In this document: piece by piece, positions 20,161 through 51,535 of the stretch
Layout of the letters: each line of letters opens with the position of its first letter
Position numbering within the stretch: position 1 is the stretch's first letter
Source: Artocarpus heterophyllus
Lineage: Eukaryota > Streptophyta > Magnoliopsida > Rosales > Moraceae
Length of the DNA stretch: 64,000 nucleotides
Assembly: GCA_025403435.1 (NCBI GenBank)
Contig: CM046341.1
Location: forward strand, 14,744,447-14,808,446
Reading direction: 5' to 3'
Translations under genes and position numbers: made by a program
The notes under the pieces: model-generated
What the model was told of the DNA's origin: nothing
The model's input: only the letters and a program-made list of their open reading frames with translations
Databases searched by the model: none

Positions 20161-20235
20161 AAAAACAACCATTTTTCTAATTTTTAAAAACTTCGGCTAT
20201 TTACCTCCAAATCTCTAAAAATAAAAACTTTGACA

Positions 20236-27215: not shown

Positions 27216-27230
27216 AGTGGTATTAGAACT
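27216..27230 (+). other. Primer-binding site of outer copia element
   Basis: agtggtattagaact matches the TGGTATCAGAGCT type (initiator Met-tRNA) with two mismatches, directly after the LTR. Confidence 0.75.
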
Positions 27231-27543: not shown

Positions 27544-27583
<40 letters not shown>

Positions 27584-30508: not shown

Positions 30509-30535
30509 AGTTTGGCAGGCCGATAGATAAGTTCG
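30275..30535. repeat. TCGGC-NN-GCCGA-type motifs in the solo LTR
   Basis: Four half- or near-full motifs occur: gataggccgat, ggcaggccgat, ggcttgccgat and ggcaggccgat. They lie 120-380 bp upstream of the TATA box. Confidence 0.7.
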
Positions 30536-31257
30536 AATTGGCAATTTAAAGATAATTTGATTACGTGTTTTTGAAGTGATTTCATCAGAAGTTGATCCAA
30601 ATTCAAATTTTTGAGGTCTTATTTGATAATGATTGACCCCATGTCCGACCTCTATAAATAGGGGGTGAGTTTTCTCAGTTATTTAGATTAGTTGAAAAGT
30701 TTAGAGTTGAAAAGTTTAGCTCTAGGTCTTCTCAATTGGTTGGAATGAGAGTCACTGGGGAAAAAGTTGTACAACATATGCCCACACACACTCCGATCGT
30801 GGATAGAGAATAGCAAAGAAGACTAATTGGTTAAGGCTCTTTTGGAACGTTCTTCTCTTCACTAATTGCAAGAGCTCTTCAGCATACAAGGGTTAGTAAG
30901 ATTTGATTAATTTATGTATATAACATGTCAAATTTAGGTTTGAAAAAATATTCTAATTAAAAAAATTTTAAAATTCCTATGCGTACTCATTCTCCAACAC
31001 TTCAAATCATGGCAAGAGAACCTCCTTATAGTTCTCGGAGTCATGCATCTTGACCTTACGTTAAGGGTTCCTTCTTCAACACCTCTTATAGATAAGAGTT
31101 TCTTTGATGAAAAGAAGGACATAGAAAGGTGGAAGAAGCCAAATCGCGTGTATATGATGATCATAAAGAAGGCCATTCTAGAGGCATTCAGGAGCACTAT
31201 ATCGGGAATGATAAGGACAACCAAAGAGTTCTTCGAGGACATTGAGAAGAGATTTGC

Positions 31258-31690
31258 CAAAAATAAAAAGGCTGAAACAACTACACCTTTGGCAAGCCTT
31301 ATCTCAATGAGATATAGAGATGAGGGGAACATCAGGGAGTATATTGTGGAGATGTCTCATCTTGCTTCAAAACTAAGAGCACTTAAGCTTGACCTCTCTG
31401 AGAACTTGCTAGTGCATTTGGTTCTTATATCTTTTCTTCACATTTTAGTCAGTTCAAGGTGAGCTATAACTGTCAAAAATAAAAAGGCTGAAACAACTAC
31501 ACCTTTGGCAAGCCTTATCTCAATGAGATATAGAGATGAGGGGAACATCAAGGAGTACATTGTGGAGATGTCTCATCTTGCTTCAAAACTGAGAGCACTT
31601 AAGCTTGACCTCTCTGAGAACTTGCTAGTGTATTTGGTTCTTATATCTTTTCCTACACATTTTAGTCAGTTCAAGGTGAGCTATAACTGC
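31258..31690. repeat. 216-bp tandem duplication inside gag
   Basis: caaaaataaaaaggctgaaa at 31258 recurs at 31474. The two copies are almost identical apart from a 1-2 nt deletion in copy 1 near 31435. The period is a multiple of three. Confidence 0.9.
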
Positions 31691-31855
31691 CAAAAGGAGA
31701 CTTGGTCTCTTAATGAGCTCATCTCACACTGTGTGCAAGAAGAGGAAAAGTTGAAGGAAGACAAGACAAAAAGTGCTCACTTACCTAATACTTCCAAGGA
31801 CAAAGGGAAGAAAAGAAAGAAGGATAAGGAAGCTGCAGCTATGGCACCTTAAAAG

Positions 31856-32386
31856 AAACAACAAAAGAGACAAGATGATCCAGAAGGCATAGGTTGTTTC
31901 CTCTGTGGAGCTGCAAGACATAAGAAGAAGCATTGCACTAACTATCACACTTAGCATGCTAAGAAAGATATGCTTCTTAATTTGGTTTATTATGAGGTTA
32001 ATTTAACTTTGGTACCTAAACACACTTGGTGGATAGATTCTAGTGCAATCACTCACATCAGTGTGTCTAGGCAGGGTTGTTTGAGATGTCAAGAGCCACG
32101 TGATGGTGAAAGATATATCTATGTGGACGATAGCAAGAAGGTTGAAGTTAAAACAATAGGAAAATTTAGATTATTGTTAAAGACTAGATTTTATTTGGAT
32201 CTTAATGAGTCATTTATTGTACCGTTTCTTAGACGAAATTTGATTTCTATTTCTACTTTGGACAAATCTGGTTATTCTTGTTCATTTGGAAATGGAAAAT
32301 TTAGTTTGTTTCATGATTCAAAATTGGTTGGTTCTAATTCTTTGTCAAGTTACAATGATATTTATTTGATTGATACAATTACTTAA
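31856..32386 (+). pseudogene. Zinc knuckle and protease of outer copia element
   Basis: CFLCGAARHKKKHC fits the CX2CX4HX4C gag zinc knuckle. Downstream, WWIDSSAITHI is the aspartic protease active-site region (family WVDSGA) and FLRRNLISISTLDKSGY is the conserved C-terminal block. A stop lies between knuckle and protease; the protease frame 31970-32386 is open. Confidence 0.85.
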
Positions 32387-32439
32387 TTTAATGAATCCTT
32401 GCAGTTAAGTACACGAGGTACAAAGAGAAAATTAACCAA

Positions 32440-32936
32440 TGATAATTTAACTACGTTATGGCACAAGAGATTAGGTCATATCTCCATAAGGAGAATAGAA
32501 AGACTTGTGTTAGACAAACCTTAGATTTTATAGATTTTGATGTTTGTGTAAACTGTATAAAGGGAAACTAAACCAATAAAATGAGATTTGAAGCCAACAG
32601 GACTTTGGACGTCTTAGAACTTATACATACAGATATTTGTAAGCCATTCCTTATAGTTTCTTAGAATGGTCAATAATATTTTATAACGTTTATAGATAGA
32701 TTTTCTAGATATGGCTACATATATCTCATTCATGAAAAGTGACAATCGCTGGATGTGTTCAAAAATTATAAGGCTAAAGTTGAAAACTAATTCAACAAAA
32801 GGATTAAAAACGTCAGATCTGTTCGTGGTGGTGAATACTATGACATATATAATAGTTTAAGTGAACAACATCTAGGACCGTTAGCTAAATTCCTAGAGGA
32901 ATACGATATCATCCCATAGTATACTATGCCGAGTTC
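32440..32936 (+). pseudogene. Integrase, N-terminal part, outer copia element
   Basis: The GAG-pre-integrase block LWHKRLGHIS, a degraded zinc-binding region and the core ITFIDRFSRYGYIYL and VRSVRGGEYYD can be read with several stops. The frame ends at YTMPS, where the gypsy LTR inserted, and resumes at 49359. Confidence 0.85.
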
Positions 32937-32995
32937 TGTAACGCCCCTATATGGGGGTTAACAGTTTTTCATGAATTAAAATAAAGATCTGAAAT

Positions 32996-33264
32996 TGTAA
33001 TTTTTATGAATGATGAATAACTGTCTCTATTTCATTACTGGAATATCATACATATATACAGGAGAACAGAAACAACCTTGCCTACAAATAAGGAAGGTTA
33101 ACAACTAACGCAATCAGAAGGATAGTGAATCTGACTAATTGCAATCAATCACTCCTAATAAGATTTGTTCAAATATAACCAGAATAACTTATTTTCTAAA
33201 GAAGAGGAGGAAAATCAGGAAACTAATAAAACAAAGACAAAATAAGGTCTATCATAATTCTACA
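32996..33264 (-). repeat. 3' LTR of level-3 copia
   Basis: Plus-strand termini are tgtaatttttatg and aattctaca. Confidence 0.93.
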
Positions 33265-33284
33265 CTCTCCCTCAAGCCGGGGTG
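33265..33284 (-). other. Polypurine tract of level-3 copia
   Basis: Read on the minus strand it is ccggcttgagggagag adjoining the LTR, the copia PPT form. Confidence 0.8.
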
Positions 33285-33424
33285 AAGATGTTATTCATTC
33301 TAAGCTTGGAGCTTAATTCTTCGAAGCACTTCCTAGGCAATGCTTTAGTTAGGATGTATGCAACTTGTGAGCTTGTTGGTGTGTAGATTAACTGAATAAT
33401 CTTTTCTTCAATCTTTTCTTTGAT

Positions 33425-34961
33425 AAAGTGTCAGTCAATCTCTACATGTTTAGTCCTATCATGATGGACTGGATTTTTGGCGATGCTTGTGGCTGACTGA
33501 TTGTCACAGAAAAGTTTCAATGGTCCTTCGATCTTGACTCCAAGTTCTTCAAGTAGTTGTTTGATCCAAATGCCTTCACAAATACCGAGAGCCACAGCAT
33601 GCGCTACTTCGGGATACAATAGGCTGCTTCTTGCTCCTCCATGTTACTAGATTTCCCAAAACATAAGTACAATAACCAGATGTAGATCTTCGATCAATCA
33701 CTGATCCCGCCCGGTCTACATCACTATAGATTTCTACTCCCACAACTAGAACACTTCTTGAAATATAGCCCTTTTCCTTGTGTGAGCTTTAAATATCTCA
33801 GAATTCTGTACACAACTTCCATATGTTCCTCTCGTGGGTCATTCATGTATTGACTCGCAACACTGACAGAGAAGCTGATATCAGGACGAGTGTGTGAGAG
33901 ATATATGAGTTTGCCAACTAACCTTTAATATCGGCCCTTATCCACTGGAGGTCCCTTTTCAGCTCTCTCAAAGTTCACTATAGTCATTAGAGTTTCAGCT
34001 GGTTTACACCCCAGCATCCCACACTCTTTGAGTAGGTCCATAACATATTTCCTTTGGGATACTGATATTCCATGACTCGATCTAGCCACTTCCATTCCTA
34101 GGAAGTATCTAAGGTTCCCTAGATCTTTGATCTCAAACTCCTTGGTAAGAGTTTTCTTCAAACTAATCATTTCTTCTGTGTAATCACCAGTAACAATTAT
34201 GTCATCAACATATACTATGAGGATAGACACTTTACCTTCTGGGCACCTTTTTATGAACAGGGTGTGATCTGATTGCCCCTGAGAGTATCCGTTTAATCTT
34301 ACAACTCTTGTAAACCTATTGAACCAAGCTCTTGGGGATTGTTTAAGACCATACAAGGACCTTTTCAACTTGCAGACCTATTCCTAGTGAAGTGAGTCTC
34401 AAAACCAGGAGGAATTTTCATATACACTTCCTCTTCCAGATCTCCATTTAGAAAGGAATTTTTTACATCTAATTGATAAAGTGGCTAGTCAAGACCCTTA
34501 TTGTGTTGAGTTTTGCTACTGGTGCAAAGGTTTCTTAGTAGTCAATTCCATAAGACTGAGTGAAGCCTTTTTGCAACAAGCCTGGCCTTGTATCTATCAA
34601 CACTTCCATCCTCCTTACACTTGATTGTAAATATCCATTTGCACCCTACTGGATTCTTTCCTAGAGGTAGATTAGTGAGTTCCCAAGTTTGATTCTTTTC
34701 TAGTGCCCGAATCTCCTCAAATATAGCTGCCTTCCAAGAAGGATCTTTAAGAGCTTCCTGATTGTTAGTGGGAACCTGTAAGGCATCCAAATTCGTAACA
34801 AAGGCTTGAAACTTTGGTGAAAGATTTGAGTAAGAGATATAATTACGAATTGGATGTTGAGTGCAAGATCGCACTCCCTTCCTTAGAGCAATTGGCCAGC
34901 CCAAATCATCAGTGATACAGTCACTAGGAGGGGGTTCAGAAGTTGTGTTGCCTTCATTCAA
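33425..34961 (-). pseudogene. Reverse transcriptase and RNase H of level-3 copia
   Basis: The RT N-terminal block is at 34542-34961 (EEIRALEKNQTWELTNLP and VGCKWIFTIK). A frameshift around 34370-34540 separates it from 33925-34368, with RSLYGLKQSPRAWF and the catalytic YVDD in LIVYVDDIIVTGDY. RNase H follows (TRPDIS block near 33890, [21 protein letters not shown] at 33431-33619). Only a few stops and frameshifts interrupt the sequence. Confidence 0.9.
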
Positions 34962-35237
34962 TGAATCTGGATTGGGCTATTGGTCAGGTTCAGCAAGTGC
35001 ATGAGGTTGTACACTTTCTCTCCTGGAATGGACACTTAGTTCATTAGTCATTGGTGAGTCTGAAGATGGGACAGACACTACAAGTATGGAGCTGGGTAAA
35101 TTAGGAGTATTTTCTTGTGTGTCAGGTGCAGGAGAATTTTAGAGATCAATGAATAGTTGAGGTTTGGTATTCTCAAAGTAAGAAGGGTGAGAAGTGGGAA
35201 AACTTATTTGTGATGGTTCACTCTCCACATCCCAGGA

Positions 35238-35764
35238 CTAACATTCTTTACTGTAGTCACTCTCCCCCTGAATGATAGGATTAGGATAAAAAGGTTGATT
35301 CTCAAAAAAGGAAACATCCATAGAATTATAGTACCTTCTAGTGATTAGAGATAGCATTTGTACCCTTTTTGATTGGATGAATAGCCCAAAAAAATGCATT
35401 TGATTGCCCGAGGATCTAACTTCCCACGATTTGATGAGTGAATATGGACAAAGGCTGAACACCCAAATACTTTGAGTGGAATGGTAGACGCAAGACGAGA
35501 GGTGGGATATGTTTCTAAGAGAGCTTGAAGTGGAGTTAAAAATTTGAGAACTCAAGAGGGCATACGATTTATTAAGAATGACACTGTAAGTATGGCATCC
35601 CCCCAAAAAAATTTTAGAACATTGGCTGAAAACATAATAGATCTGGCAACTTCAAGAAGGTGCTTGTTTTTTCGTTCTGTAATACTGTTCTGTTGTGGGG
35701 TATCAACACAAGAACTTTGATGAACAATACCTTCACTCAACAAATATTCCCCCAAGATAGATTT
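35238..35764 (-). pseudogene. Integrase, C-terminal part, level-3 copia
   Basis: 35552-35755 encodes [20 protein letters not shown] and VARSIMF, the integrase region around the catalytic Glu (family TPQQNGVAERKN). A change of frame follows at about 35600. The upstream half of integrase lies at 44724 and above, beyond the inserted young element. Confidence 0.88.
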
Positions 35765-35769
35765 AAAAT

Positions 35770-38129
35770 TGTAACGCCCCTATATGGGGGTTAACAGTTT
35801 TTAATGAGATAAAATAAAAATAAATAATAAAAGTAAAACCTTAAAGATTAAAATTTGCCCGGGACTTAAATGAAAACTCTCAACTCAAAAATAAAAATAT
35901 AAACGACAAATAAACCACAGTTTTAATGTAGCACCTTAAATTTAATAATATAAACTGTTGTCATCATCATTTTAACCCTCAACACATTGTAATACAGTCA
36001 CAGAAAGTAACAATTGATGCTTACATTATCATGAAGAACATTCTTTACAATTGAGCAGTCCCAATGTAATATAGTTACATCGCTTCCTCAACTATATTTC
36101 TCGTAGCCACCTCACACTTAGTGAGTCCTGAAAAGATATAAATATAAGGGAATGAGCGACACTATGCTCAGTAGAGAAAGCCATTACTCACCTTTAGGTT
36201 TTTATCATTACCACATTAAAATCTGCATGGTTAGTAAGTTACATCATATTCCAGATTATGAGGTTTATTATGATCACATCTTATGGATACCGTAGTTAAT
36301 CATTACCAAGTGTCATAATTACACATTTATACAAATATTACCAATCATCATTGTTCCTAGGTATCCATGTTAAATTGAGTATCACTCAACTCATCGAAAC
36401 CCAAATGGGCGCACTTGATCACCCTATAAACATTCCAAGGGTGTTCCGGTGAGGGGACATCAAGCCCCGAGTCCTCACCAAATCGATTCCTGTACAGTGT
36501 GTTCTGGGACTTTCAACCCAAGGAAGCGTCATCGCCTTCCCCCTATTTTACCTTTTAGGGTATTCATGCCCAAGGACGTAACCGTCGCCCTCTTCATGTC
36601 TCACAATTTCTCTATATTGAATCATTATCAATAGAGTTAGTTTTCCTAACCATGCTTCTCAATTTATAATATGTGTCAATTCATTATGTTCCTCGCCGTA
36701 CAATACAAGACGAGTCCATGTCATAGTTTCATATGTGATAATCATATAATATCAGTTCAACATAGATATATATATATTGCGGCAAAACAATCAATTTTAA
36801 TTCTATAAAAACCTCACAAAAGATGAGTAATAGAATCCCTACCTTTCAAGCTTATCAACAATCTTTTAATCCTGGAATCAGTTAACGTTAGCTCCATACT
36901 CCCTTGATCCTAAGGCGTGCATAAGGACAATTAAAACTAAAGCACAACATACAACTACATTCATAAATAAATCATGTGTAAACCTATCTTACTAGTATGC
37001 CATTAAAGCTTTTATATAAATCTCTTTTGAATACCACAGTAAACAATTTTTGTCTTAACACAATATAAAATGTGAACAAGTAATCTATATGTTTTAGTCC
37101 CTAATAAGATTCATCAATCACTTAGGATAATATTGGAAAGGTTGCAAGACATTAAAGAATTAGGTGGTGAGCAAAGATGGGTTCTTGGTTCAGGTTAGCA
37201 GCTGGTATACCATAACAAACTGGCAGATTTACTAGTTTCCAATACAAAAATTGAATAATTCTTAGAAAATAAAATACAACTCCGATTTAGGTTTATGATA
37301 GCTCGTTAGAAAGCCTAGGATGCTACTTTTCAAATATGCAAACCAATTCATAAAATTCATTTTAATTTAATCTTAGAATTTCAAGAAATAACCACTGCCC
37401 ATAGGGGTATTACAAAGTTTAACAATATAAATTTTTTGTCTAGGGCATATACACTTAGACTTCATACATATGCTCCAAAATAGCAACAAACATATACTTA
37501 GGTTTAAGAACGCAAATTTGAATAATCCTTTAGTATAAAAGAAAATTTATAAATGAAAGACTAAATTTGTTCATAAGATTCTAACCTCGGATTATGGTTA
37601 GTTGGAAGCTTGAAATGGCTTCAAAACAGGTTCCTTTAGTTCGGTATGACTGAAATTCTTGCTCAAATGGAGGTGATGGTGGCTGATTTTTATGGCTGCC
37701 TTGAAGAAGTTCTCTAAGTATTTTGCTTCAGCAAAGAAATGAGAAGAAGAGTGTGGGAACCGTGGAAGAGAAAGGAAGAAAAGATGAAGTCTTTGAAGAG
37801 AAGTGATAAAAACAATTATAGAGGAGACATGTTGAAGCATGTCACGGAGGAAATAAAGAAAATGAGGGTCAAGAGTAGTTGGAAAAGATATCCTTATGTC
37901 TCATCTAAAGACTTTAACACATATAATGCCAATATGACATTTTTGAGATTTATTAGAAGTTCTAAGGCTTTTTAGTAATCATACTAAATAAATATAGGAG
38001 AATTTTAGAAAATTTAAAAATAGATAAAAATAAATATTATAAAATAAATTTAAATGAAGCAATTTTTTTTATACATTAAAAATTAATTTAATTACCTCAA
38101 TACCCGTTAGGAGAATAACGGGTGTCACA
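35770..38129 (-). repeat. 3' LTR of young element
   Basis: 2360 bp. In plus coordinates it runs from tgtaacgcccc to ggtgtcaca. Small ORFs at 36449-36634, 37598-37840 and 37739-37975 recur identically in the other LTR and look non-coding. Confidence 0.97.
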
Positions 38130-38147
38130 GCTCTACCCCCCTTAAAG
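38130..38147 (-). other. Polypurine tract of young element
   Basis: The minus strand reads ctttaaggggggtagagc directly before the 3' LTR, preceded by cgaaattt, a layout typical of plant gypsy elements. Confidence 0.9.
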
Positions 38148-38798
38148 AAATTTCGTCCTCGAAATTTCAATTCTAGCAATACTAGTAAAAATTATGATTC
38201 CACTATGATTCCAATTCTGAGTCTAAACCGTTAATGTTGTTTGTCCTCCAAATTTAAGTTATCGTATTTCCACTTATTTACTTGCATAATAAATCTTACT
38301 CCTAAATCCCTCAATAAGAGTATTTCTGACAAGTTTCAACTTATAACACCGTATAATAGTCTAAGAATCTAATCAGGCATACATATTGACCATATCATGA
38401 TTCCAGTCCTTCATTGTCCATGGACTGTGATTTACAATCACATTTAAAGAGATTGCCAGAGAAATTTTATATACTTCATCTTTAGGTTCCTTTCCCTTTT
38501 TAAGTAAGGAAAAGTCAAATATATTTGATTTCATACCTCAACTAATAAACTAAAACATAATCATAAAACATATATCACAAACACTTATATTCAAAACCAT
38601 ACATTAAACTTATTCATAGAGATATTAAACGGAATCTCAGAGTTGCAAACATACCCGACATATTTTTCATTAAACAGCTATCCTCATGACACAAACATTC
38701 AATCCAAATAATATACTCATATTTCATATGGAATATCCCCATAACTGACTCTGGTACTTCCACATAATATTAACAGAATATTACACATTACAAACATG

Positions 38799-38950
38799 AT
38801 ACGGATACGTTTCGAGAGTACAAGGCACTCCGTATACCAGCTATCCATATCATGCATGCTTAGAGGATACAAAAACATCGATAAACAAAAGATCGGACCT
38901 TAAGAAGGATGCGTTTCGAGAGCATCAAGTACTCCGTATCCAGCCATCCC
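38799..38950. repeat. Duplicated hairpin-forming block downstream of the LOG-like ORF
   Basis: Copy 1 (38801-38846, ggatacgtttcgagag and ctccgtatacc) and copy 2 (38906-38949, ggatgcgtttcgagag and ctccgtatcc) lie about 105 bp apart. Each pairs internally: atacgga with tccgtat in copy 1, ggatgcg with cgtatcc (one wobble) in copy 2. They sit in the 3' untranslated part of the element transcript. Confidence 0.75.
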
Positions 38951-39084
38951 GGCATTAGGCTCAATGAATCTAAAAGATTGAACAACAACGTACCACAAGA
39001 AACACAGAATACAAGGCAAACGGTTATTCGTAACACACGAAATACGGACACACATGCCTACATGCCAAAGATAAAACAAAAAGA

Positions 39085-39735
39085 TTACAGATGGAGATTC
39101 AAATCAATTGGCCGCTCCCGGCTTTCCCTTTCCCATTCAAGCTTGGATGTTGCAGTGTCGGATTCTGGATGTATGATTTGCATTTTATCTATCAATTCCT
39201 CAGCTGTTGAAGCAGTGACAAAGATTTGTCTCTCCGATTCTGTAGTGATGTTTTCTTCCACAGCGTAATCTAGAAATTTTAAAAGACCGTCATAAAAACC
39301 CTTTACGTTCAGCAGTCCCAAAGGTTTGGAATAAAAGCCCAACAATTGCCCACAAGCAACTATAAATATTTCCTCAAGAGTACCTAGACCACCAGGTAAT
39401 GCTATAAAAGCATCAGAATTATAGATTATGTCTTTAAAATTTTTAGGGATACTCCTGACTCCTTCTCCCTTACCTATGGCTTCCTTACAAAGGTTTCCTT
39501 CAACTGGAATATGAGGCCAAATTCTTACATCAGTAGCGTCGCTAGACCTAGCTGCTAGTGTCATATTTACCATCATTTTTATACTACCACCCCCATAGAT
39601 TATGTTAATCTTCTTGTGTGCTAGGACTTGCCCTAAGTGATTTGCAGCTTCTAAATAAGCTTTATCTTTTCCAAGGCTGGAACCACAAAAGACACAGACA
39701 TTCTTTATTTTCTTCGTGGACTGGGAGGTAGACAT
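39085..39735 (-). CDS. LOG-like protein (cytokinin riboside 5'-monophosphate phosphoribohydrolase family), retrotransposon cargo
   Basis: A 216-aa intact ORF of the length of plant LOG enzymes, which release active cytokinin bases from nucleotides in the cytosol. Visible family marks are VCVFCGSSLGKDKAYLEAA (13-31), INIIYGGGS (43-51), SDAFIALPGGLGTLEE (107-122, the PGGxGTxxE signature), KPLGLLNVKGFYDGLL (137-152) and SKLEWE near the C terminus. The start chosen is the ATG at 39735; an upstream in-frame GTG extension is unlikely. Plant LOG genes normally have several introns and this has none, suggesting capture as cDNA. Oddities: the GGGSxGLMG motif reads GGGSIKMMV, and the Arg expected in the conserved MxxRKxxM region aligns with Asn99. 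Catalysis may therefore be altered or lost. It is in sense orientation within the young LTR element, about 640 bp after the Cys-rich ORF. Confidence 0.88.
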   Translation of the reverse strand: MSTSQSTKKIKNVCVFCGSSLGKDKAYLEAANHLGQVLAHKKINIIYGGGSIKMMVNMTLAARSSDATDVRIWPHIPVEGNLCKEAIGKGEGVRSIPKNFKDIIYNSDAFIALPGGLGTLEEIFIVACGQLLGFYSKPLGLLNVKGFYDGLLKFLDYAVEENITTESERQIFVTASTAEELIDKMQIIHPESDTATSKLEWERESRERPIDLNLHL

Positions 39736-40378
39736 ATTTGGTTTATAGAAGTGGTTGCTTAATGTCTGCTCCACTTAGACTTCGGGTTCTACATGAGATT
39801 TTAAAGATGAGAAATATACAAAAAGGGCTAAAGAGATAGACGAGTAGGTAATGAAAAGGTAATCCAAAGATTTAAACAAAATCTTGTGCGGATAAGAAAG
39901 TAAGATAAGGTGATTGATAGTTTACAGAAAATCTGATTCACTTTTTGAAAAAGATTAGACTCTAATTGTATAACTTTTGACAATTGAGAACAATTCGACA
40001 GAAGACCCTCTTGACACAACTGTAGACTTTTTGACAAATATACACCAAGTCTAGAAATTTAATATAAACGACAAATACTGTAGAACTTTTGAAATTTGAG
40101 ACACAAATCTTGAAATATCCGGATAAGCTTTTCAAAATTCAAACATATTACTATACCGTATGTAACGTGTCTGATAAGATAATATATTTTATTATATATA
40201 TATTTAAGAAAATCATAAATTAAATAAGATATTAACACTTACTGTATCAATCTAATAATCACAATTATTTCAAACACAAAAGCAAATATTCTGAGTAAAA
40301 GAAAAACACAAACTGTTGAACATCAGCTAAAACTGCTTCAAATAAGTAAAGACTAAATAACCTTTATAGAGCGATGAC
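39736..40378 (-). other. Spacer between the two cargo ORFs
   Basis: About 640 bp without a significant sense ORF. An open frame of 69 codons (39828-40037) has no recognisable product. An internal promoter, IRES or splice acceptor would be expected here if the second ORF is translated, but none can be called by eye. Confidence 0.4.
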
Positions 40379-40900
40379 TTATTCCCCATCCAGTTTTCTT
40401 ATGGTTTGGCAAACAGGATCTAGAAATACCATATTCCTGAGGCGTTGTCTTTCTGTATAAAATTTAGGCCAGAGTTTAAAAATAGCTCCTTGAACATATC
40501 CACTAGGGTGACCGTGAAGAGGAGGATGGATGCTATCCAAGTTCTCCTTTGAAAGTCCATCCCTACAAAACCTTATTTTATCCTCTCTATTCGTAGACAT
40601 ATAACCAGGTGAAGTACATTTACCGTTACAATTTTGTCTTCCACATTTGTTACAAGCGACCACGATGGCACGGGCTCTTCTTTTCATTGCACTACGACTG
40701 GTACCTGTTCCTGGTAAACCGACATCTTGACTAAAGTCACTCGGACGGATTTTCCCCTCTATTAACATTCTCACATCACAAGGGATACCAAAACGCATAA
40801 GAATCCACAACCGAGTAATTCTAGCCTTGTATTTCTTTCTGAGAATCTTTTGGGAGAGTGATGGGAAATACTTTCTCAGGTGTTGGTACTTTGGGTCCAT
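40379..40900 (-). CDS. Basic Cys4-finger protein, retrotransposon cargo, resembles carlavirus-type cysteine-rich nucleic-acid-binding proteins
   Basis: A 173-aa intact ORF from an ATG at 40900. The N-terminal third is basic (KKYKARITRLWILMRFG, 22-38). Residues 70-79 (SAMKRRARAI) form an Arg-rich stretch directly followed by a Cys4 finger, C83-x2-C86-x4-C91-x3-C95, then SPGYM. An arginine-rich motif running straight into a compact Cys finger and a Pro-Gly turn is the layout of the small 3'-proximal cysteine-rich proteins of carlaviruses and relatives, which bind nucleic acid and in several cases suppress RNA silencing. The resemblance is by eye and limited to about 40 residues. The N-terminal segment and C-terminal 60 residues are not recognised. 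It could instead be a diverged gag-like or host zinc-finger protein. It is the first sense ORF after a 1.4-kb leader in the young element. Confidence 0.7.
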   Translation of the reverse strand: MDPKYQHLRKYFPSLSQKILRKKYKARITRLWILMRFGIPCDVRMLIEGKIRPSDFSQDVGLPGTGTSRSAMKRRARAIVVACNKCGRQNCNGKCTSPGYMSTNREDKIRFCRDGLSKENLDSIHPPLHGHPSGYVQGAIFKLWPKFYTERQRLRNMVFLDPVCQTIRKLDGE

Positions 40901-42338
40901 GATGAGATGAAAGAAGAGTAAATAGAAATGAAAAATTAAGATAGTAAATTGCAGAATCCTAGAATTCCTTCTTCTTTTAGAGGAAAAGAAGAATTTCTAA
41001 TGAAAAAGAAGAGGATTTGCGATTTAAAGAGAAAATAACAAATTAAGAGAGAAAAAGTGAACTCGGAGAAATAAGCTCCTATGCACAGTAAACGTATTTG
41101 TAAACAATAATTAAACCACTGTATATGACACGTATAGAAACCACGTGGGAGAGACAGTGTGAATCAAACTGATTTAAGATTTAAACTAGGCCCAAATGTT
41201 CTTAGTTGAAAATGGTCAGGTTGTTTCGGGCCTTAACACATTTAGAACGAGTTAAATAACAAACATAAAATTGAAAACCAATTTGTATAAATCTTAAACC
41301 CAATTCAAAGTCCACTATAGATAAAGTTAACTATAAACAACAAATCTAATTTAACGACAACAAGGATCTTCCTGAATGATCCAGCAACTCAAATAATTTT
41401 GTTTTAATCAAAACCTTATTGAACAATACATACACCCATATGTTATTCATAATACTTAACATCTATCAATGGATTCATCATCATTACTACCAAGGGTTTA
41501 GAATGCGACTAACCTTGAAATCAATACGATTTACGTCTTTCAACGTAGACCATATCAATGAACAAAGACACTAGATGTTACTACTTAAGAACATCTACAA
41601 TCCCCACAATTCTACTTATACAATATATAATTTCCTCATATAACAAAACCTTAGGTAACCAAAAGATTCACTGATACACTTAAATACAATGTACGTAACG
41701 AAATATTCCAATTTTGAGATTCATGCATTCTAGACTTTACACAGTCTCAACAGACCAAAAGTCTAACATTTATCTCTCTCAAGATTCAATACCATGATTC
41801 CCAACTTATATCATATTCCTCAAATATATAGAACTTTTAAGAAAAGACATTGACACTTATGTGCTCCATCGAATCCACACATAATCATTACTTAGGTTTG
41901 AATCAATTACGAAAAAATTGGCATATCTATGTCAAACTTTAAAATCAATAAATCAAGCCTTATATTTCTTATTGTTTTTCACGAGACAAAAGGCTTTTCA
42001 ATCCTCGTATCTATACGAATTTCTCATCGTTTATACGAATTAGATATGCTTATAGATCCAAATATTATACGAATCTCTCATAAGCATTCTACTTATAAAC
42101 TCATTCCATATAATTATCATTCTCTTATAACTATTAATACTTTCCTTCTATATAATTATTGTACTCATATAACTATTAATATTTTCATTCTATGGCCTTT
42201 CCATGTTACATCCTTCTAGACTGCATAAATCAATGTGAAGGTTCATTTTGATGATGACAATAAAAATTCAGCTTCAAAACCATCTCAAAAATATATTTTT
42301 TTAAAGTGGTGCTACACTCCCTAGGTTAACCGAACCTA
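40901..42338 (-). other. Leader of young element
   Basis: About 1.4 kb between the PBS and the first cargo ORF, AT-rich, without recognisable gag. A plus-strand open frame at 41929-42219 is antisense and built on a repeated tata-acgaat(c)tctca pattern; I do not regard it as a gene. Confidence 0.55.
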
Positions 42339-42351
42339 GGCTCTGATACCA
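42320..42351 (-). other. Primer-binding site and adjoining hairpin of young element
   Basis: ggctctgatacca (42339-42351) is the complement of TGGTATCAGAGCC, the initiator Met-tRNA site, seven bases from the 5' LTR. It is adjoined by a perfect 8-bp hairpin, cctaggtt-aaccg-aacctagg (42320-42340). Confidence 0.9.
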
Positions 42352-42358
42352 AAAATTC

Positions 42359-44718
42359 TGTAACGCCCCTATATGGGGGTTAACAGTTTTTAATGAGATA
42401 AAATAAAAATAAATAATAAAAGTAAAACCTTAAAGATTAAAATTTGCCCGGGACTTAAATGAAAACTCTCAACTCAAAAATAAAAATATAAACGACAAAT
42501 AAACCACAGTTTTAATGTAGCACCTTAAATTTAATAATATAAACTGTTGTCATCATCATTTTAACCCTCAACACATTGTAATACAGTCACAGAAAGTAAC
42601 AATTGATGCTTACATTATCATGAAGAACATTCTTTACAATTGAGCAGTCCCAATGTAATATAGTTACATCGCTTCCTCAACTATATTTCTCGTAGCCACC
42701 TCACACTTAGTGAGTCCTGAAAAGATATAAACATAAGGGAATGAGCGACACTATGCTCAGTAGAGAAAGCCATTACTCACCTTTAGGTTTTTATCATTAC
42801 CACATTAAAATCTGCATGGTTAGTAAGTTACATCATATTCCAGATTATGAGGTTTATTATGATCACATCTTATGGATACCGTAGTTAATCATTACCAAGT
42901 GTCATAATTACACATTTATACAAATATTACCAATCATCATTGTTCCTAGGTATCCATGTTAAATTGAGTATCACTCAACTCATCGAAACCCAAATGGGCG
43001 CACTTGATCACCCTATAAACATTCCAAGGGTGTTCCGGTGAGGGGACATCAAGCCCCGAGTCCTCACCAAATCGATTCCTGTACAGTGTGTTCTGGGACT
43101 TTCAACCCAAGGAAGCGTCATCGCCTTCCCCCTATTTTACCTTTTAGGGTATTCATGCCCAAGGACGTAACCGTCGCCCTCTTCATGTCTCACAATTTCT
43201 CTATATTGAATCATTATCAATAGAGTTAGTTTTCCTAACCATGCTTCTCAATTTATAATATGTGTCAATTCATTATGTTCCTCGCCGTACAATACAAGAC
43301 GAGTCCATGTCATAGTTTCATATGTGATAATCATATAATATCAGTTCAACATAGATATATATATATTGCGGCAAAACAATCAATTTTAATTCTATAAAAA
43401 CCTCACAAAAGATGAGTAATAGAATCCCTACCTTTCAAGCTTATCAACAATCTTTTAATCCTGGAATCAGTTAACGTTAGCTCCATACTCCCTTGATCCT
43501 AAGGCGTGCATAAGGACAATTAAAACTAAAGCACAACATACAACTACATTCATAAATAAATCATGTGTAAACCTATCTTACTAGTATGCCATTAAAGCTT
43601 TTATATAAATCTCTTTTGAATACCACAGTAAACAATTTTTGTCTTAACACAATATAAAATGTGAACAAGTAATCTATATGTTTTAGTCCCTAATAAGATT
43701 CATCAATCACTTAGGATAATATTGGAAAGGTTGCAAGACATTAAAGAATTAGGTGGTGAGCAAAGATGGGTTCTTGGTTCAGGTTAGCAGCTGGTATACC
43801 ATAACAAACTGGCAGATTTACTAGTTTCCAATACAAAAATTGAATAATTCTTAGAAAATAAAATACAACTCCGATTTAGGTTTATGATAGCTCGTTAGAA
43901 AGCCTAGGATGCTACTTTTCAAATATGCAAACCAATTCATAAAATTCATTTTAATTTAATCTTAGAATTTCAAGAAATAACCACTGCCCATAGGGGTATT
44001 ACAAAGTTTAACAATATAAATTTTTTGTCTAGGGCATATACACTTAGACTTCATACATATGCTCCAAAATAGCAACAAACATATACTTAGGTTTAAGAAC
44101 GCAAATTTGAATAATCCTTTAGTATAAAAGAAAATTTATAAATGAAAGACTAAATTTGTTCATAAGATTCTAACCTCGGATTATGGTTAGTTGGAAGCTT
44201 GAAATGGCTTCAAAACAGGTTCCTTTAGTTCGGTATGACTGAAATTCTTGCTCAAATGGAGGTGATGGTGGCTGATTTTTATGGCTGCCTTGAAGAAGTT
44301 CTCTAAGTATTTTGCTTCAGCAAAGAAATGAGAAGAAGAGTGTGGGAACCGTGGAAGAGAAAGGAAGAAAAGATGAAGTCTTTGAAGAGAAGTGATAAAA
44401 ACAATTATAGAGGAGACATGTTGAAGCATGTCACGGAGGAAATAAAGAAAATGAGGGTCAAGAGTAGTTGGAAAAGATATCCTTATGTCTCATCTAAAGA
44501 CTTTAACACATATAATGCCAATATGACATTTTTGAGATTTATTAGAAGTTCTAAGGCTTTTTAGTAATCATACTAAATAAATATAGGAGAATTTTAGAAA
44601 ATTTAAAAATAGATAAAAATAAATATTATAAAATAAATTTAAATGAAGCAATTTTTTTTATACATTAAAAATTAATTTAATTACCTCAATACCCGTTAGG
44701 AGAATAACGGGTGTCACA
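42359..44718 (-). repeat. 5' LTR of young element
   Basis: 2360 bp, same length as the 3' LTR, with one difference found (c at 42732). Confidence 0.97.
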
Positions 44719-44723
44719 AAAAT

Positions 44724-45609
44724 ATTCTTTGGCATTATCTGTTCTCAAAATCTGAATTTTAGTTTGAAACTGAGTTTGGATCATAGTATTGGAGTTTTGA
44801 AAGACTTGGCTGACTTCAGGTTTTTCTTTTAAGAGAAATACCTAAGTCATTTGTGTATGATCATCTATAAATGTCACAAACCAACGAAATCCTAAAATGG
44901 TTTTTATTCGAGAGAGACCCCACACATCACTATGAACCATTGCAAAAGGACGAGAAGATTTGTACGGTTGAATTCAAAAATTACTTCGAATATGCTTTGA
45001 AAATTGACACACTTCACACTGAAACAAACTTGGATTTTTATTCTTAAATAGTAATGGAAATAGTTTTGCAAGATACAAGAAATTTGGATGACCTAAACGA
45101 AAGTGCCACATCATGGCTTCATTATTGACCAAAGGAAGAAAAACATTAGAGGATGAAATCTGAAAACCTAGACTCCTAATTTGATGAACTTGTCCACTTT
45201 GAGACTTATTGTCATTGAGTAAGTATAACCCCGAGCACTCCTTAGCCGTACCAATCGTCCTCCCCGTATCCGTATCCTTAAAATCACACAAATTATTGAA
45301 GAATTTAGTGACACAATTATGTTCCTTTGTGAGCTTACTGATGGATAATAAATTACAGTCTAGCTTGGGAACATATAACACTGAGTGAATGATCAAATCC
45401 TTGGTTAACTTCACTGTACTAACTCCATCAACCCGAGATTGTGTTCCATCAGCAATTCGAACATACCAATTTTCTTTATAGGGATTAATAGTAGAAAATA
45501 AACTTGAGTCTCCAGTCATATGGTCAGATGCTCCATAATCAACTATCCAAACAGTTGGCCTTTTTCCTTTAACATTAAGAGCATGTGTGATATTACCTTT
45601 GTGTGCCAC
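44724..45609 (-). pseudogene. Protease and integrase N-part, level-3 copia
   Basis: VWIVDYGASDHMTGD is the aspartic protease site (family WIxDSGAxxH). VLYVPKLDCNLLSISKLT is the protease C-terminal block. MWHFRLGHPNFLYL and CEVCQFSKH are the GAG-pre-integrase and zinc-binding regions. The reading frame 44974-45609 is open, and integrase continues to the insertion point at 44724 and resumes at 35764. Confidence 0.9.
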
Positions 45610-45645
45610 TAATCCAGTGGATATGATAGAGGAGGATGATTTAGT

Positions 45646-46631
45646 TTACTGTTGAACGAACAGTTTGTGGAGTAAATCCAACTGCTCCTTACTAAAGAGA
45701 GATGTCTCAGCTTTTTCAGGTTTTTCTTCAGTTGTGGCCAAGTGTCCTCTACTGTTTTTGGGAGTAGCTGACTTGGCATCATTGGGTTTACCATGTAAGT
45801 CCCAGCATCGGTCCTTTGTGTGACCTAGTTTGTGACAATGATCACATTTTGGTCTCTCCTTTTTCTGCTTTCCATTGTTGAAGAGTGGTTGTCCTCCACA
45901 GGCCACCATTGCAGATGCTTCAAAATTGTTGGTCATGCCTTGTTTTCCCATCATGATCTTCTTTTGACTTTCTTCACATTTGACTTTAGCAAATGCTTCA
46001 CGAAGACTTGGAAGAAGGCTTTTTGATAGAATCCGTCCACGAACATCATCTAAATTTTTATTCAAGCCAATTAAGAATTTGTATAGACAGGCTTCTTCAA
46101 GAATCTTCTTGTGATATATGGCATCGTCAGGGCACTTCCACTTGTATTCTCTGAACATATCTAATTGTTGCCAATAACGATAAAGAATATTGAAGTACTA
46201 AGTGACGTTGAGATCACCTTGTCGCTGATCATGAAGTACACACTCAATCTCAAACAATTCAGACTTGTTTTTGACATGCGAGTATGCCTCTTTAGCAACG
46301 TCCTAGATTTCTGCTGCCGTTTCGTATAGGAGAAAATTTTCTCCTATCTCATTTGTCATGGAGTTGATAAGCCACGACTTAACAAGATTATTCTCTGTCT
46401 TCCATGTTCGATAGGTTAAATCTTCCTTTTTTGGCTGGACTGCTTCACCAATAAGGTATTCATCTCTCCCTTTACCAGTAATGAAAATAAAACTGACTAG
46501 GACCAGGCAAGATAATTCTACCCATTAAGTTTATAACCAGTGATGACCAAGGATGAGTGATCAATAGCAGCTGGCTGATTGACAAGACCTGGGATGCTTG
46601 TTGTTGATGAGACACCCTTCTCGGCGGCCAT
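45646..46631 (-). pseudogene. Gag of level-3 copia
   Basis: Starts at the ATG at 46631 (MAAEKGVSSTTSIPGL) and runs through the NYLAWSQ block and the FLIGLNKNLDDVRGRIL segment to a zinc knuckle CDHCHKLGHTKDRC (CX2CX4HX4C) near 45840-45800. Three or four in-frame stops or shifts lie in the N-terminal half; 45646-46158 is open. Confidence 0.88.
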
Positions 46632-46812
46632 TGAAATATTTTTGCACAGACTATACGAACCTTTTTTGGACTGTACGGACTATACGGTGGTGTACAGACT
46701 GTACAAAAATTTGTACGGAATTGATGTGCAGTGAGCACGAGTGCTTGTACGGACAACAGTTCTAGGGCTAGGAGAACAAAATGCCCCAGGATTTTAATCT
46801 GAGACTAAAGAA

Positions 46813-46827
46813 ATGGCTCTGATGCCA
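46813..46827 (-). other. Primer-binding site of level-3 copia
   Basis: atggctctgatgcca is the complement of TGGCATCAGAGCCAT and directly abuts the LTR at 46828. Confidence 0.9.
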
Positions 46828-47097
46828 TGTAATTTTTATGAATGATAAATAAATGTCTCTATTTCATTACTGGAATATCATACATATATACAGGAGAACA
46901 GAAACAACCTTGCCTACAAATAAGGAAGGTTAACAACTAACGCAATCAAAAAGATAGTGAATCTGACTAATTGCAATCAATCACTCCTAATAAGATTTGG
47001 TCAAATATAACCAGAATAACTTATTTCCTAAAGAAGAGGAGGAAAATCAGGAAACTAATAAAACAAAGAGAAAAATAAGGTCTATCACAATTCTACA
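46828..47097 (-). repeat. 5' LTR of level-3 copia
   Basis: 270 bp, about 97% identical to the LTR at 32996..33264. Confidence 0.93.
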
Positions 47098-48369
47098 GAA
47101 ATAAAAGTAAAACTTCAAAAATAAAGTAGCCCGAGACTTAAATGAAAACTTTCAAATCAAAATATAAATATAAATATAAATAGCAATTAAACCACAATGT
47201 AAGGTAGCACCTTAAATTTAAATAAAACTATCATTTCAACCTTCAATACATCTTAATACAATCACAGAAAGTAACAATCGATGTTTACATTATCATGAAG
47301 AACATTCTTAACAATTGAAGCAATCCCAACGTAATATAGCTTCATAGCTTCCTCAACTATTTTCCTCGTAGCCACCTCACACTTAGTGAGTCTTGAAAAG
47401 ATGAAAATATAAGGGAATGAGCGATAACATGCTCAGTAGGGAAAACATAACTCACTTTTAGGTTTTTACCATTACTATATTGAAACCTGCATGCTTAGTT
47501 AGCTCTCAATATTAATAATCAATATTATCATGTTCAATTCTGGTGGATAAATTATGATCCTTCTTACCAAGTTTCATACGTCTATATACATACTTATTCA
47601 AGATTCAATTATGCTTATCTATATCTACCATGCAATCACTCAACTCAACGAAACCCAAGTGAGCGCGCTTGACCACCCTACAATCATTCCAAGGGTGTTC
47701 CATTGAGGGGACATCAAATCCTAGATCCTTACCAAGTTGATTCCTATACAGTGTGTTCTGGGACTTTCGACCTAATAGAGCGTCATCACCTCCCCCTATT
47801 TTACTTTTTAGGGCATTCGTGCCCAAGGACGTAACTGCTGCCCTTTTCATATCTTACCATTCCTCTATAATCATTCATTATCTATAGAGTTAATTATTCC
47901 TAACCATGCTTTTCGATTTACAACAACATATGTCAAATCAATATATTCCTCGCTATACAATACAGGATGAGGTCTCATATGTGACACTCATATAATAGCA
48001 GCTCAACATACATATATATATATATCTTGCAATAAAACAACCAATTTTAATTCCATAAAAACCTCACAAAAGATGAGAAATAGATTCCCTACCTCTTGGT
48101 GAATACCATGCCAATAACTTCCAGCTCACAATACCAGGCTTACAACGTAAGCTCTTAGTGCTTTGTCATCTTACGACGTATAAAATAATCATACTTTAAC
48201 TAAATTCTTAATCCATAATCATACCAATTTACCATTTATTCTTATTAGTGTGCCATAATCATTTATTTGAAATCCTTGGAACATTTTGTAACACAAAATG
48301 ATGAAAAATAAGTGTGTTTGGAATGTCCAATCAGCCTTCCAAACAAAACTGCTAGTTCTGGACCCTTTG

Positions 48370-48490
48370 TTGGCCTGTTGATCTTAAAGTTTGGCCTGTC
48401 GGTACTGTTCATCGGCCTACCAAACTTTCAGTTTGGCCTGTCAAACCTACCGACAGGTACGGCTTGCCAATTGAAAAGATCGGTCTACCG
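48370..48490. repeat. TCGGC-NN-GCCGA-type cluster in the level-2 LTR
   Basis: About seven diverged versions (ttggcctgttga, ttggcctgtcgg, atcggcctaccaaa, ttggcctgtcaaa, cggcttgccaa, tcggtctaccga) occur in 120 bp. The equivalent place in the young family member's LTRs lacks them. Confidence 0.75.
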
Positions 48491-49358
48491 ATAATACAAC
48501 TTCTGGAAATCAAATTCTCAAGTTTCAAAGGTTTCAAACTTTAATACTAAATCTGCCCCTTTTTAACAATTTTTAGGGTATAGAAAATGCATAAAACTAT
48601 AGATTAACACTTTTAAACATATATAAATCATTTTTTTCAACATTTTTATGCTCAACAAATAAATCTAAACTAAAGATCAAAACTTTTCAAAATTAGCTCA
48701 AAAACTAAGTTTAAACAAAGATCTATGTAAATCAAGCTTTAAGAACATTGTATAATTACCCACAAACATTCAAGGACACATTTCTCTCAATTCTCATACC
48801 AAAACATAAATTTAACTCAAGGTTTTTAGCTTAGAAAACTTTACCTCAAGCTTGAAGAAAAATAGTGATTTTGTTTGTAAAAATCCTTGATCTTGTTTTG
48901 TGATCTTGGTAGATCCACGAAAATAACTTCGGATTTCCTCTTTTAATCACTTTGAAGCTAAGTTGATGATCTTGATTTTGAAGAAATCAAAGAGAAAAGA
49001 AGAGAGAAAACAGAGAGGAAAAGAGAGAGAAAAAAAGAGTTTCGTGAGAGGAGAGAAGAAAAAAAAAAGAAAAGAAAAAGTAAAGACGTGAGAAAATAAT
49101 GGGGGTTGGCAGGTAAAAATCAAGTCTCCATCAGAGACTTTGGAGCAAATAATGCCAAATGACAGTTTTGTGATTAAATTAAAGTTCCAAGGGCCTTTTG
49201 GTCAATATACTAAATAAGTATAGAAAAATTTTAGAAACTTTAAAAATAGATAGAAATAAATCATATGAATTAGTTTTTAAATGAAACAATTTTTAATTGG
49301 CACACTAAAAATTAATATAATTTCCATTATACCCATTAGGAAAATAACAGGTGTCACA

Positions 49359-49899: not shown

Positions 49900-51535
49900 A
49901 TTTTAGAAATTGTTCCAAAAGAACAAACTCTACCACCTCAAGAACCTATGGCATTAAGGAGATCCGCTAAAGAAAGAAGAAGTACGGTGCCAGATGATTA
50001 CATTGTATTTCTCTAAGAACATAAGTTTGACATCGTTGTGGTGGAAGATGATCCAATCAACTTCCGTTAATCAATAGAAAGTTCTAGATCTCAGGAGTAG
50101 ATTGATGCCATGAATGAGCAGATAAAGTCTATGGAGGACAATGATATTTTGGATCTTGTCCCATTGCTTGAATGAGTGAAACCCCTTGGTTGCAAATGGA
50201 TATTTAAGACCAAAAGGGATTCGAAAGGCAGTGTGGAGAGGTACAAGGTTTGTCTTGTCGCTAAAAGCTTTACATAGAAAGAAGGCATCAATTATAAAGA
50301 GACTTTTTCTCCAGTTTCTTCGAAAGACTCCTTCAAGATTATAATGGCATTGGTGGCACATTTTGATCTTGAGATTTATCAAATGGATGTTAAGACTATG
50401 TTTCTCAACAACAACATTAATGAAGCAATATATATGGTGCAACTAGAAAACTTTGTGTCAGGAGATGCAAAAAAGATGGTTTGCAAGTTAAAGAAATCCA
50501 TCTATGGGCTTAAGCAGGCCTCTCATCAATGGTATTACAAATTTAATCAGGTTATTATCTCATTCAGTTTTGAGATGAATGTGGTCGATGATTGTATATA
50601 CCATAAGTTCAATGGAAGCATGTATATTTTTCTAGTTTTATATGTCGATGACATTTTGTTTGCCAGCAACGACGTAGGCTTATTGTATGAAACCAAGAGA
50701 TTTCTATCAAACAAATTTGAGATGAAGGATTAACGCCTCTTTTGTGTTGGGTATATAGATACACTAGGATTGCTCTCGGGGTATTCTTGAATTAATACTA
50801 AAGGGCTATATCAAAAAGGTTCTTAAGAGATATGACATACAGGTTTGCAAACCAGGTGATACCCTTGTGGCTAAAAGAGGCAAGTTTAGTCTCAATCAGT
50901 ACCCTAAGAATAATTTTAAGATTTAGGAAATGTAGAAGATTCTTTATGCATCAGTAGTAGGGCATCTGATGTAAGCTCAAGCTTGTACGTGTTTGGATAT
51001 TACGTACGTTACAAGGATATTGGGTAGATAATTAAGCAATCCTACAAAGGATCATTGGATAATAGCCAAATGATCTTGATGTATTTACAGAGAACAATAG
51101 ACTACATGCTCACGTATCAGAGGTCGTAACAGCTTGAGATTATTGGGTATACTAACTCCGATTATGTTGGATAACAAAATAGTATGAAATCTATATTGGA
51201 CTATGTCTACCTTCTAGTTGGAGGTGCTATCTCTTGGAAGAGTGCTAAATAGTCTCTTATAGCGTCTTCTACCATGACGGCAGAATTCATAGCGTGTTAT
51301 AAGACATCAAATCATGGAATATGGCTGTGAAATTTTTGTCACAGGGCTATGCATAGTAGACAGTATTCAAAAACCACTCAAGTTATTTTGTGACAATAAG
51401 TCGGCAGTTCTATATTCGAACAACAACAAGAGCTCGACAAAGTCAAAGCATATAGACATCAAGTTCCTGGTTGTGAAAGAAAGAGTTCAAAGTGGACAGT
51501 TATCTATAGAGCACATCGATACAAACTCATGATCA
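49900..51535 (+). pseudogene. Reverse transcriptase and RNase H of outer copia element
   Basis: The RT block at 50344-50733 includes YQMDVKTMFLNNNINEAIYM, KKSIYGLKQASHQWYYKF and the catalytic YVDD (VLYVDDILFASNDVG). RNase H follows with [15 protein letters not shown] at 51314-51532. Stops occur throughout, for example at 50733 and between 50740 and 51310. Confidence 0.9.

What the first reader, a model, noticed from the sequence alone, without database searches (positions are those of the whole stretch)
35765..44723. A very recently inserted LTR retrotransposon that carries two intact non-retroviral ORFs instead of gag-pol
Seen: identical-length LTRs (2360 bp) with one mismatch found by eye, exact TSD aaaat, intact Met-tRNA primer site, intact PPT, and two uninterrupted sense ORFs (173 and 216 aa). 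No gag, RT or integrase is recognisable. Known: non-autonomous LARD-type elements usually carry no ORFs, and gene capture by LTR elements normally gives broken fragments. Inference: this is an active cargo-bearing family mobilised by an autonomous relative, in which both ORFs have been kept open, possibly because they are useful to the element or host.
Basis: partly seen in the sequence, partly recalled or inferred. Interest (0 to 1): 0.93.

Follow-up and report, generated by a model that had tools for sequence, protein, structure and literature searches.

The report
Jumping gene carrying virus-like anti-silencing cargo
A young plant jumping gene that has lost its own copying machinery still carries two intact accessory genes, one resembling a plant-virus zinc-finger protein of a kind known to block RNA silencing and one resembling a hormone-activating enzyme whose active site has decayed, which suggests that mobile elements keep and pass on genes for handling their host.

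Summary
The cargo was not identified before. The 173-aa ORF belongs to a large plant family matching the carlavirus nucleic-acid-binding zinc-finger protein (Carla_C4/Viral_NABP), a class reported to suppress RNA silencing. The 216-aa ORF has a LONELY GUY (LOG) fold. It lies outside canonical host LOGs and has lost catalytic Arg99 and pocket residues, but keeps a C-terminal LxLxL tail, present in 88 of 96 full-length non-canonical LOG hits and 0 of 14 canonical ones.

A contaminant contig (L002) carries the NABP-like ORF directly downstream of a Ty3-type integrase without a detected chromodomain. So at least this cargo is an accessory retroelement gene, not a recent host capture. Met priming is reported absent from non-chromoviruses, so the cassette may have moved between LTR-element lineages. 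LOG-type domains in LTR elements are already in print; I found no report of NABP-like cargo in my searches. Function, dN/dS within the family and helper identity remain untested: the genome search did not complete.

The parts
44719..44723 (.). target-site duplication AAAAT (+), 5' side of the element
42359..44718 (-). 5' LTR, 2360 bp, TGTGACACC...GGGGCGTTACA
   Evidence: 1 mismatch to the 3' LTR
42340..42351 (-). primer binding site TGGTATCAGAGC (Met-tRNA type; identity recalled)
40901..42339 (-). non-coding leader; 35 ATG triplets in the 1458 bases between the 5' LTR and the first ORF
40379..40900 (-). ORF 1, 173 aa, carlavirus NABP-like zinc-finger protein (KRRAR then C-x2-C-x4-C-x3-C)
   Evidence: homologues P0001-P0004, 899 proteins at E<=10 with the profile, Pfam Viral_NABP in 83 and Carla_C4 in 78 of 88 aligned members at E<=0.01; the window protein itself only E 0.011, below the cut-off
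39736..40378 (-). 643-bp spacer between the ORFs
39085..39735 (-). ORF 2, 216 aa, LOG-fold protein lacking catalytic Arg99, with C-terminal LxLxL tail (IDLNLHL)
   Evidence: PF03641 E 8.6e-22, TIGR00730 2.4e-37, PDB 2a33 2.1e-43, model matches 2a33_A with TM-score 0.87 by target length and 0.72 by query length, residue counts
38131..38143 (-). polypurine tract AAGGGGGGTAGAG next to the 3' LTR
35770..38129 (-). 3' LTR, 2360 bp
35765..35769 (.). target-site duplication AAAAT (+), 3' side
32996..47097 (-). context: degraded Ty1/copia element into which the element inserted (LTRs 46828-47097 and 32996-33264, 96.7% identical)
47098..49358 (-). context: 5' part of an older solo LTR of the same LTR family, TSD GAACT, split by the copia element
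32937..32995 (-). context: 3' end of the same solo LTR (GGGGCGTTACA) followed by TSD GAACT

Best explanation
This is a young, non-autonomous LTR retrotransposon that keeps the cis signals (LTRs, Met-tRNA primer site, PPT) but has lost gag-pol. It retains two accessory genes belonging to protein families associated with plant LTR retroelements. Proposed mechanism: the element is transcribed from its LTR, packaged, reverse-transcribed and integrated by the proteins of an autonomous, Met-primed relative, most likely a Ty3 chromovirus (a copia helper is not excluded by the primer site). The two ORFs are probably translated from spliced or internally started RNAs, because 35 upstream ATGs precede ORF 1. 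Protein 1 is a zinc-finger nucleic-acid-binding protein that dampens host RNA silencing or alters host transcription, as its viral look-alikes do, so that the element's RNA survives. Protein 2 is a LOG-fold scaffold that no longer cleaves cytokinin nucleotides; it most likely acts through binding, possibly recruiting corepressors by its LxLxL tail. Shown: anatomy, near-identity of the LTRs, protein families, loss of active-site residues, tail conservation, and the NABP-like gene next to a Ty3-type integrase in another element. Inferred: the helper, the expression mode and both protein functions.
For: Anatomy. NABP-like family; the L002 protein matches Viral_NABP at 34.2 bits against a cut-off of 23 (Carla_C4 19.8 against 20.9). 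Linkage of that family to a Ty3-type integrase. Constraint on NABP between window and L002: 172 codons, 52% aa identity, codon positions differ 42/31/55%, NG86 dN 0.47 and dS 2.4 (saturated), LWL85 0.43 and 1.20; the YN00 estimate failed. A neutral simulation at 55% per site gave mean identity 17%, maximum 28%, and no stop-free sequence in 3000. LOG fold. Tree of 43 of the 121 LOG-type sequences held: 8 canonical host LOGs form one side of a branch at 100/100, window outside them. Active site: Arg99 and Glu122 proposed catalytic, Met96/Lys100/Glu121 at adenine, Met96/His97/Lys100/Trp129 among the prenyl-site residues in CgLOG (PMC4979012, passages; positions equated here through the alignment); window has N99, I96, P97, F100, G129 but keeps E121 and E122. 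LxLxL tail in 88 of 96 full-length non-canonical hits, 0 of 14 canonical, and in 30 of 34 of a reduced set. Viral CRPs as silencing suppressors and, for one carlavirus, a transcription factor causing hyperplasia: PMC12172455 (passages).
Against: The window NABP-like protein alone is below the Pfam cut-off (16.1 against 23 bits), and its AlphaFold model is poor (pTM 0.34). It has changed 17 of 74 positions that are at least 90% conserved in the family (other members, left out one at a time: median 3, maximum 11), and the LOG-like protein 14 of 59 (median 1, maximum 8). Both branches are long (1.17 and 1.36 against median end branches of 0.15 and 0.11), which fits relaxed constraint as well as new function or a distant host. 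No copy number, no within-family dN/dS, no expression and no helper element were seen, because the genome search did not complete (17 identical requests). Linkage of the LOG-like relatives to retroelements was not seen by me in DNA other than the window. NABP linkage rests on one contig, whose pol frame is itself interrupted by a stop at 101-103.
Confidence: 0.5

Rival explanations
1. Passenger relics: a full element carrying these accessory ORFs recently lost gag-pol by deletion, and the ORFs are open only because too little time has passed; they do nothing for this element.
For: LTRs nearly identical; enzyme residues lost in the LOG-like protein and many conserved positions changed in both proteins; no DNA-level selection test within the family.
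Against: Gag-pol left no recognisable remnant while both ORFs are intact, which is asymmetric. A 99% identical copy of the altered LOG-like protein (P0005) is recorded from 12 contigs, so the altered form multiplied. All four zinc-finger cysteines, a basic run and the LxLxL tail are kept.
Confidence: 0.3
2. Same-lineage deletion derivative: the element descends from an element of the L002 type (non-chromovirus, Athila-like by eye) and there was no transfer of the cassette between lineages.
For: L002 carries NABP directly behind a pol ORF that lacks a detected chromodomain. From memory only, LOGL4-like ORFs were reported in two Athila-like elements.
Against: [quoted passage not shown] LTR ends and the PPT context resemble chromoviruses of the Tekay type (recalled, not tested; a pattern search in viral contigs found nothing).
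Confidence: 0.25
3. Recent capture of host genes: the ORFs were copied from host LOG and host zinc-finger genes by this element.
For: LOG genes are widespread in plants and gene capture by LTR elements is known in general (both recalled).
Against: The LOG-like protein falls outside the canonical host LOG group (100/100) and shares the non-canonical tail. Apart from P0005, the listed matches are at most 49% identical. The NABP-like family has a member beside an integrase (L002).
Confidence: 0.05

Closest known systems
LTR-retrotransposon consensus sequences with a YgdH (LOG-type) domain, Citrus and Populus trichocarpa (PMC9289625, section 12 read; it cites Steinbauerova 2011, not held)
   Same: LOG-type domain carried by an LTR retrotransposon
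   Different: those consensuses were found through reverse transcriptase, so they belong to RT-bearing elements; no NABP-like partner, active-site loss or LxLxL tail is described in that section
Carlavirus and related cysteine-rich nucleic-acid-binding proteins (Pfam PF01623, PF05515)
   Same: profile match including a basic run and a cysteine finger; the L002 member scores above the Viral_NABP cut-off
   Different: mostly about 182 aa (window 173) with a conserved C-terminal part; encoded in plant DNA, at least once behind a Ty3-type integrase; the window protein is itself below the cut-off
LARD-type and other large non-autonomous LTR elements (recalled)
   Same: LTRs, PBS, PPT and TSD without gag-pol
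   Different: interior keeps two intact ORFs of conserved families
Orchid Ty3 elements with an AlkB m6A demethylase (PMC9289625, abstract and section 12)
   Same: accessory gene proposed to counter host surveillance
   Different: large, about 25-kb elements; different enzyme, with activity shown in vitro

Membership tests
LTR retrotransposon, non-autonomous | paired LTRs, TSD, PBS, PPT | tested here: met
LTR retrotransposon, non-autonomous | no gag-pol coding capacity | tested here: met
LTR retrotransposon, non-autonomous | autonomous helper with matching LTR and PBS in the same genome | not testable with these tools
   The genome search did not complete (17 requests)
LARD | interior without coding capacity (recalled) | tested here: not met
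   two intact ORFs
LOG (cytokinin riboside monophosphate phosphoribohydrolase) | LOG fold | tested here: met
LOG (cytokinin riboside monophosphate phosphoribohydrolase) | PGGxGTxxE motif | tested here: met
   PGGLGTLEE in the translation
LOG (cytokinin riboside monophosphate phosphoribohydrolase) | catalytic Arg99 and pocket residues (PMC4979012) | tested here: not met
   N99, I96, P97, F100, G129; NCBIfam equivalog 84.2 bits against a cut-off of 300
Carlavirus-type NABP (Viral_NABP/Carla_C4) | Pfam profile match above cut-off | tested here: inconclusive
   window protein 16.1 against 23 bits; relatives match: 83 and 78 of 88 at E<=0.01, L002 34.2 bits for Viral_NABP
Carlavirus-type NABP (Viral_NABP/Carla_C4) | basic run and four-cysteine finger | tested here: met
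   kept in window
Carlavirus-type NABP (Viral_NABP/Carla_C4) | silencing suppression or DNA/RNA binding | not tested
   needs an assay
Athila (non-chromovirus) | primer site other than tRNA-Met (PMC6317226) | tested here: not met
   PBS TGGTATCAGAGC
Ty3 chromovirus (Tekay-like) | chromodomain integrase or RT phylogeny | not testable with these tools
   no pol in the element; Tekay resemblance of LTR ends and PPT context is recalled only

The most novel reading that the evidence does not exclude
Plant LTR retrotransposons carry a two-gene host-manipulation cassette: a plant-virus-type zinc-finger silencing suppressor, and a LOG-derived protein with a corepressor-recruiting LxLxL tail that is losing or has lost its enzyme activity. 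The cassette passes between LTR-element lineages. In this family it has outlived gag-pol, giving a non-autonomous element that borrows replication proteins but brings its own counter-defence.
Probability: 0.3. Interest if true: 0.88.

Novelty: new variant of a known kind. Interest (0 to 1): 0.68.

Why it matters
Plant transposons are held down by RNA silencing. A widespread element-borne relative of viral silencing suppressors would offer a concrete counter-defence to test, and a link between plant RNA viruses and retroelements. A non-autonomous element that drops gag-pol yet keeps accessory genes would suggest that replication proteins can be borrowed while counter-defence must be brought along. 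A LOG relative that loses its catalytic residues but keeps an LxLxL tail would mean that an enzyme was turned into a regulator inside a transposon.

Tried and rejected
Recent capture from host LOG rejected on the tree. A hit of ORF 1 to KduD-type dehydrogenases (E 0.0006 but 19.3 bits against a cut-off of 430, E 0.034) was set aside as chance and contradicted by the NABP-like family. Searches of viral contigs with the NABP alignments gave no relative. With the LOG alignment they gave one 38% match over 75 residues (L001), not followed. A DNA pattern for the PPT neighbourhood gave nothing in viral contigs, so lineage by that route failed. LOG and NABP on one contig in relatives: three longest-contig lengths coincide (905, 734, 4511) among 98 LOG and 116 NABP rows; 22 LOG and 5 NABP rows with very long or no contig were left out. 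About 3.6 exact coincidences are expected overall and about 0.08 above 3000 nt, so the 4511 pair (P0077, P0130) is only suggestive. The NABP AlphaFold model (pTM 0.34) was too poor for a fold search. Rfam found nothing in the window. Literature: 10 searches used; searches gave no paper, and the longer lists were seen only in part (for example 15 of 33, 12 of 129,636). No listed title or abstract start reported a carlavirus-type NABP in retrotransposons. The additional-ORF review PMC7264820 and the Retand paper PMC11963269 held none of the LOG or NABP terms asked. PMC6338049 was read in parts 1 and 2 of 4 and treats mainly viral helicases in insect elements and element-borne methylases. PMC11593424 (passages) held no match for the retrotransposon terms. 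Steinbauerova et al. was not held and is recalled only.
Full report
OBSERVATION. The element is real and correctly delimited. It lies on the minus strand: TSD, 5' LTR 42359-44718, Met-type PBS 42340-42351, ORF 1 (173 aa, 40379-40900), ORF 2 (216 aa, 39085-39735), PPT 38131-38143, 3' LTR 35770-38129, TSD. One mismatch in 2360 bp; with usual plant rates of about 0.65 to 1.3e-8 per site per year (recalled) this is roughly 16,000 to 33,000 years. None of 2000 randomised interiors gave an ORF of 173 aa. No gag-pol was found: the next longest sense frame is 76 aa, and the 8 other sense segments of 54 aa or more and 2 antisense ORFs had no Pfam match at E<=0.1.

SURROUNDINGS. The insertion is nested. 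An older solo LTR of the same LTR family (start 49358, end 32937, TSD GAACT on both sides) was split by a Ty1/copia element whose LTRs are 96.7% identical, and the young element landed inside that copia element. The young and old LTRs are about 79% identical over the first 235 bases or so and about 1 kb of the 3' half, and 92% over the last 52; much of the rest is poorly alignable. So this LTR family has moved at widely separated times. The host is presumably a plant; its species was not identified.

ORF 1. A single-sequence search found 4 relatives. With an alignment of these the search found 899 proteins at E<=10, of which the best 120 are listed, and those 120 carry the precomputed Carla_C4 label. 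Named hosts in that list are Populus x canadensis, P. alba, Xanthoceras sorbifolium and Acer yangbiense; most rows are unnamed. Of 88 aligned sequences (the window and 87 of the 121 relatives held), 83 match Viral_NABP and 78 Carla_C4 at E<=0.01; the window protein does not (E 0.011). The core is a basic run followed by C-x2-C-x4-C-x3-C, kept in the window. The family also has a conserved C-terminal half. The window protein has changed 17 of 74 strongly conserved positions, and with P0001 it sits on a branch of 1.17 in a tree of 46 sequences.

THE KEY NEIGHBOUR. One scan of bacterial and archaeal contigs gave L002, a 3330-bp contig in a bacterial MAG that looks like plant contamination. It holds the end of a pol ORF with integrase zinc-binding and core domains (PF17921, PF00665) and no chromodomain at E<=0.01. 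The frame is closed upstream by a TAA at 101-103, so this copy may be defective. Its stop codon is at 1592-1594, and an intact 182-aa NABP-like ORF begins at 1799. P0143, recorded from a 10,263-bp contig, contains the same 182 residues. The window and L002 NABP-like genes share 52% of residues over 172 codons, with more change at third positions than second. In simulated neutral divergence of that size identity averaged 17% and never exceeded 28%. Synonymous sites are saturated and one of three estimators failed, so the ratio is only indicative, and it covers the whole path, not the time since gag-pol was lost.

ORF 2. Pfam, NCBIfam, PDB sequence search and a fold search all give the LOG family (model pLDDT 77). 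The protein search scored 8000 candidates and listed the best 120 of 7768; the counts here are of that list. Of the 119 listed hits other than the near-identical copy P0005, 14 have the canonical M-H-R-K pocket pattern and 105 do not. In a tree of 43 sequences (window and 42 of the 120), the 8 canonical host proteins labelled as such form one group at 100/100. The window lies outside it, on a branch of 1.36 shared with P0005 against a median end branch of 0.11. One canonical-pattern protein, P0006, was not labelled host and falls beside the host group, and the window's place within the other 34 is poorly resolved. Many of the 105 look like near-copies of a Populus group, so counts overstate independence; in the reduced alignment A4, 30 of 34 non-canonical rows (P0005 left out) have the LxLxL tail. 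Of the 105, 94 keep Arg99, 1 keeps Lys100, 103 keep Glu122 and 103 keep Trp129. The window has lost Arg99, Met96, His97, Lys100 and Trp129 and keeps Glu121 and Glu122. The tail is in 88 of 96 full-length non-canonical proteins, preceded by a basic cluster in 85 of 96, and in 0 of 14 canonical ones. LxLxL is the EAR-type corepressor motif (recalled), and a role for it here is inference.

HOW IT LIKELY WORKS. Cis signals are intact, so replication by a helper's proteins is the standard reading (inference). The primer site is of the Met type; [quoted passage not shown] L002's pol has no detected chromodomain. If L002 is a non-chromovirus, the NABP-like gene occurs in two LTR-element lineages, which implies exchange or repeated acquisition. 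Resemblance of L002 to Athila and of the window LTRs to Tekay is recalled, not tested; a copia-type helper is not excluded. With 35 ATGs between the LTR and ORF 1, the ORFs need splicing or internal starts (inference). Viral cysteine-rich proteins suppress silencing, and one (Chrysanthemum virus B p12) acts as a transcription factor inducing hyperplasia (PMC12172455, passages). The same activity in the element protein is a hypothesis.

KNOWN AND NEW. LOG-type (YgdH) domains in LTR-retrotransposon consensus sequences of two Citrus species and, with a looser filter, P. trichocarpa are in print (PMC9289625, section 12). I found no report of the carlavirus-type NABP as retroelement cargo in my searches (open-licence library only, listings seen in part). 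The non-autonomous element with both genes, the active-site loss and the tail did not turn up in what I could search. I rate it a new variant of a known kind.

LIMITS. The genome search did not complete, so copy number, helper, DNA-level selection within the family and host identity are open. Linkage of the non-canonical LOG relatives to retroelements rests on the cited paper and this window. NABP linkage to a Ty3-type integrase rests on one contig.

Noticed in passing
32937-49358: Three-level nesting: old solo LTR of the same family (TSD GAACT), copia element inside it, the young element inside the copia.
   Followed up: partly
221-2789 and 6543-9092: Large inverted duplication, 69-82% identical in pieces, at the left end of the window.
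   Followed up: no
23705-24043 (-): Exon-like ORF matching ER lumen protein retaining receptor (PF00810, E 3.9e-28), a probable host gene.
   Followed up: no
31463-32386 and 50278-50733 (+): Copia gag, Pol_BBD and RVT_2 fragments on the plus strand flanking the nest, possibly one older copia element split by the solo LTR.
   Followed up: no
L002:1640-1665: Pyrimidine-rich stretch ending in a 3' splice-site-like CTGCAG between the pol stop and the NABP-like ORF, suggesting expression from a spliced RNA (by eye).
   Followed up: no
LOG relatives P0007-P0124: Conserved basic plus LxLxL C-terminus in a multi-copy non-canonical LOG group (named members include several Populus proteins, Reevesia and Diplodiscus); possibly a general class of retroelement LOG-EAR proteins.
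   Followed up: partly
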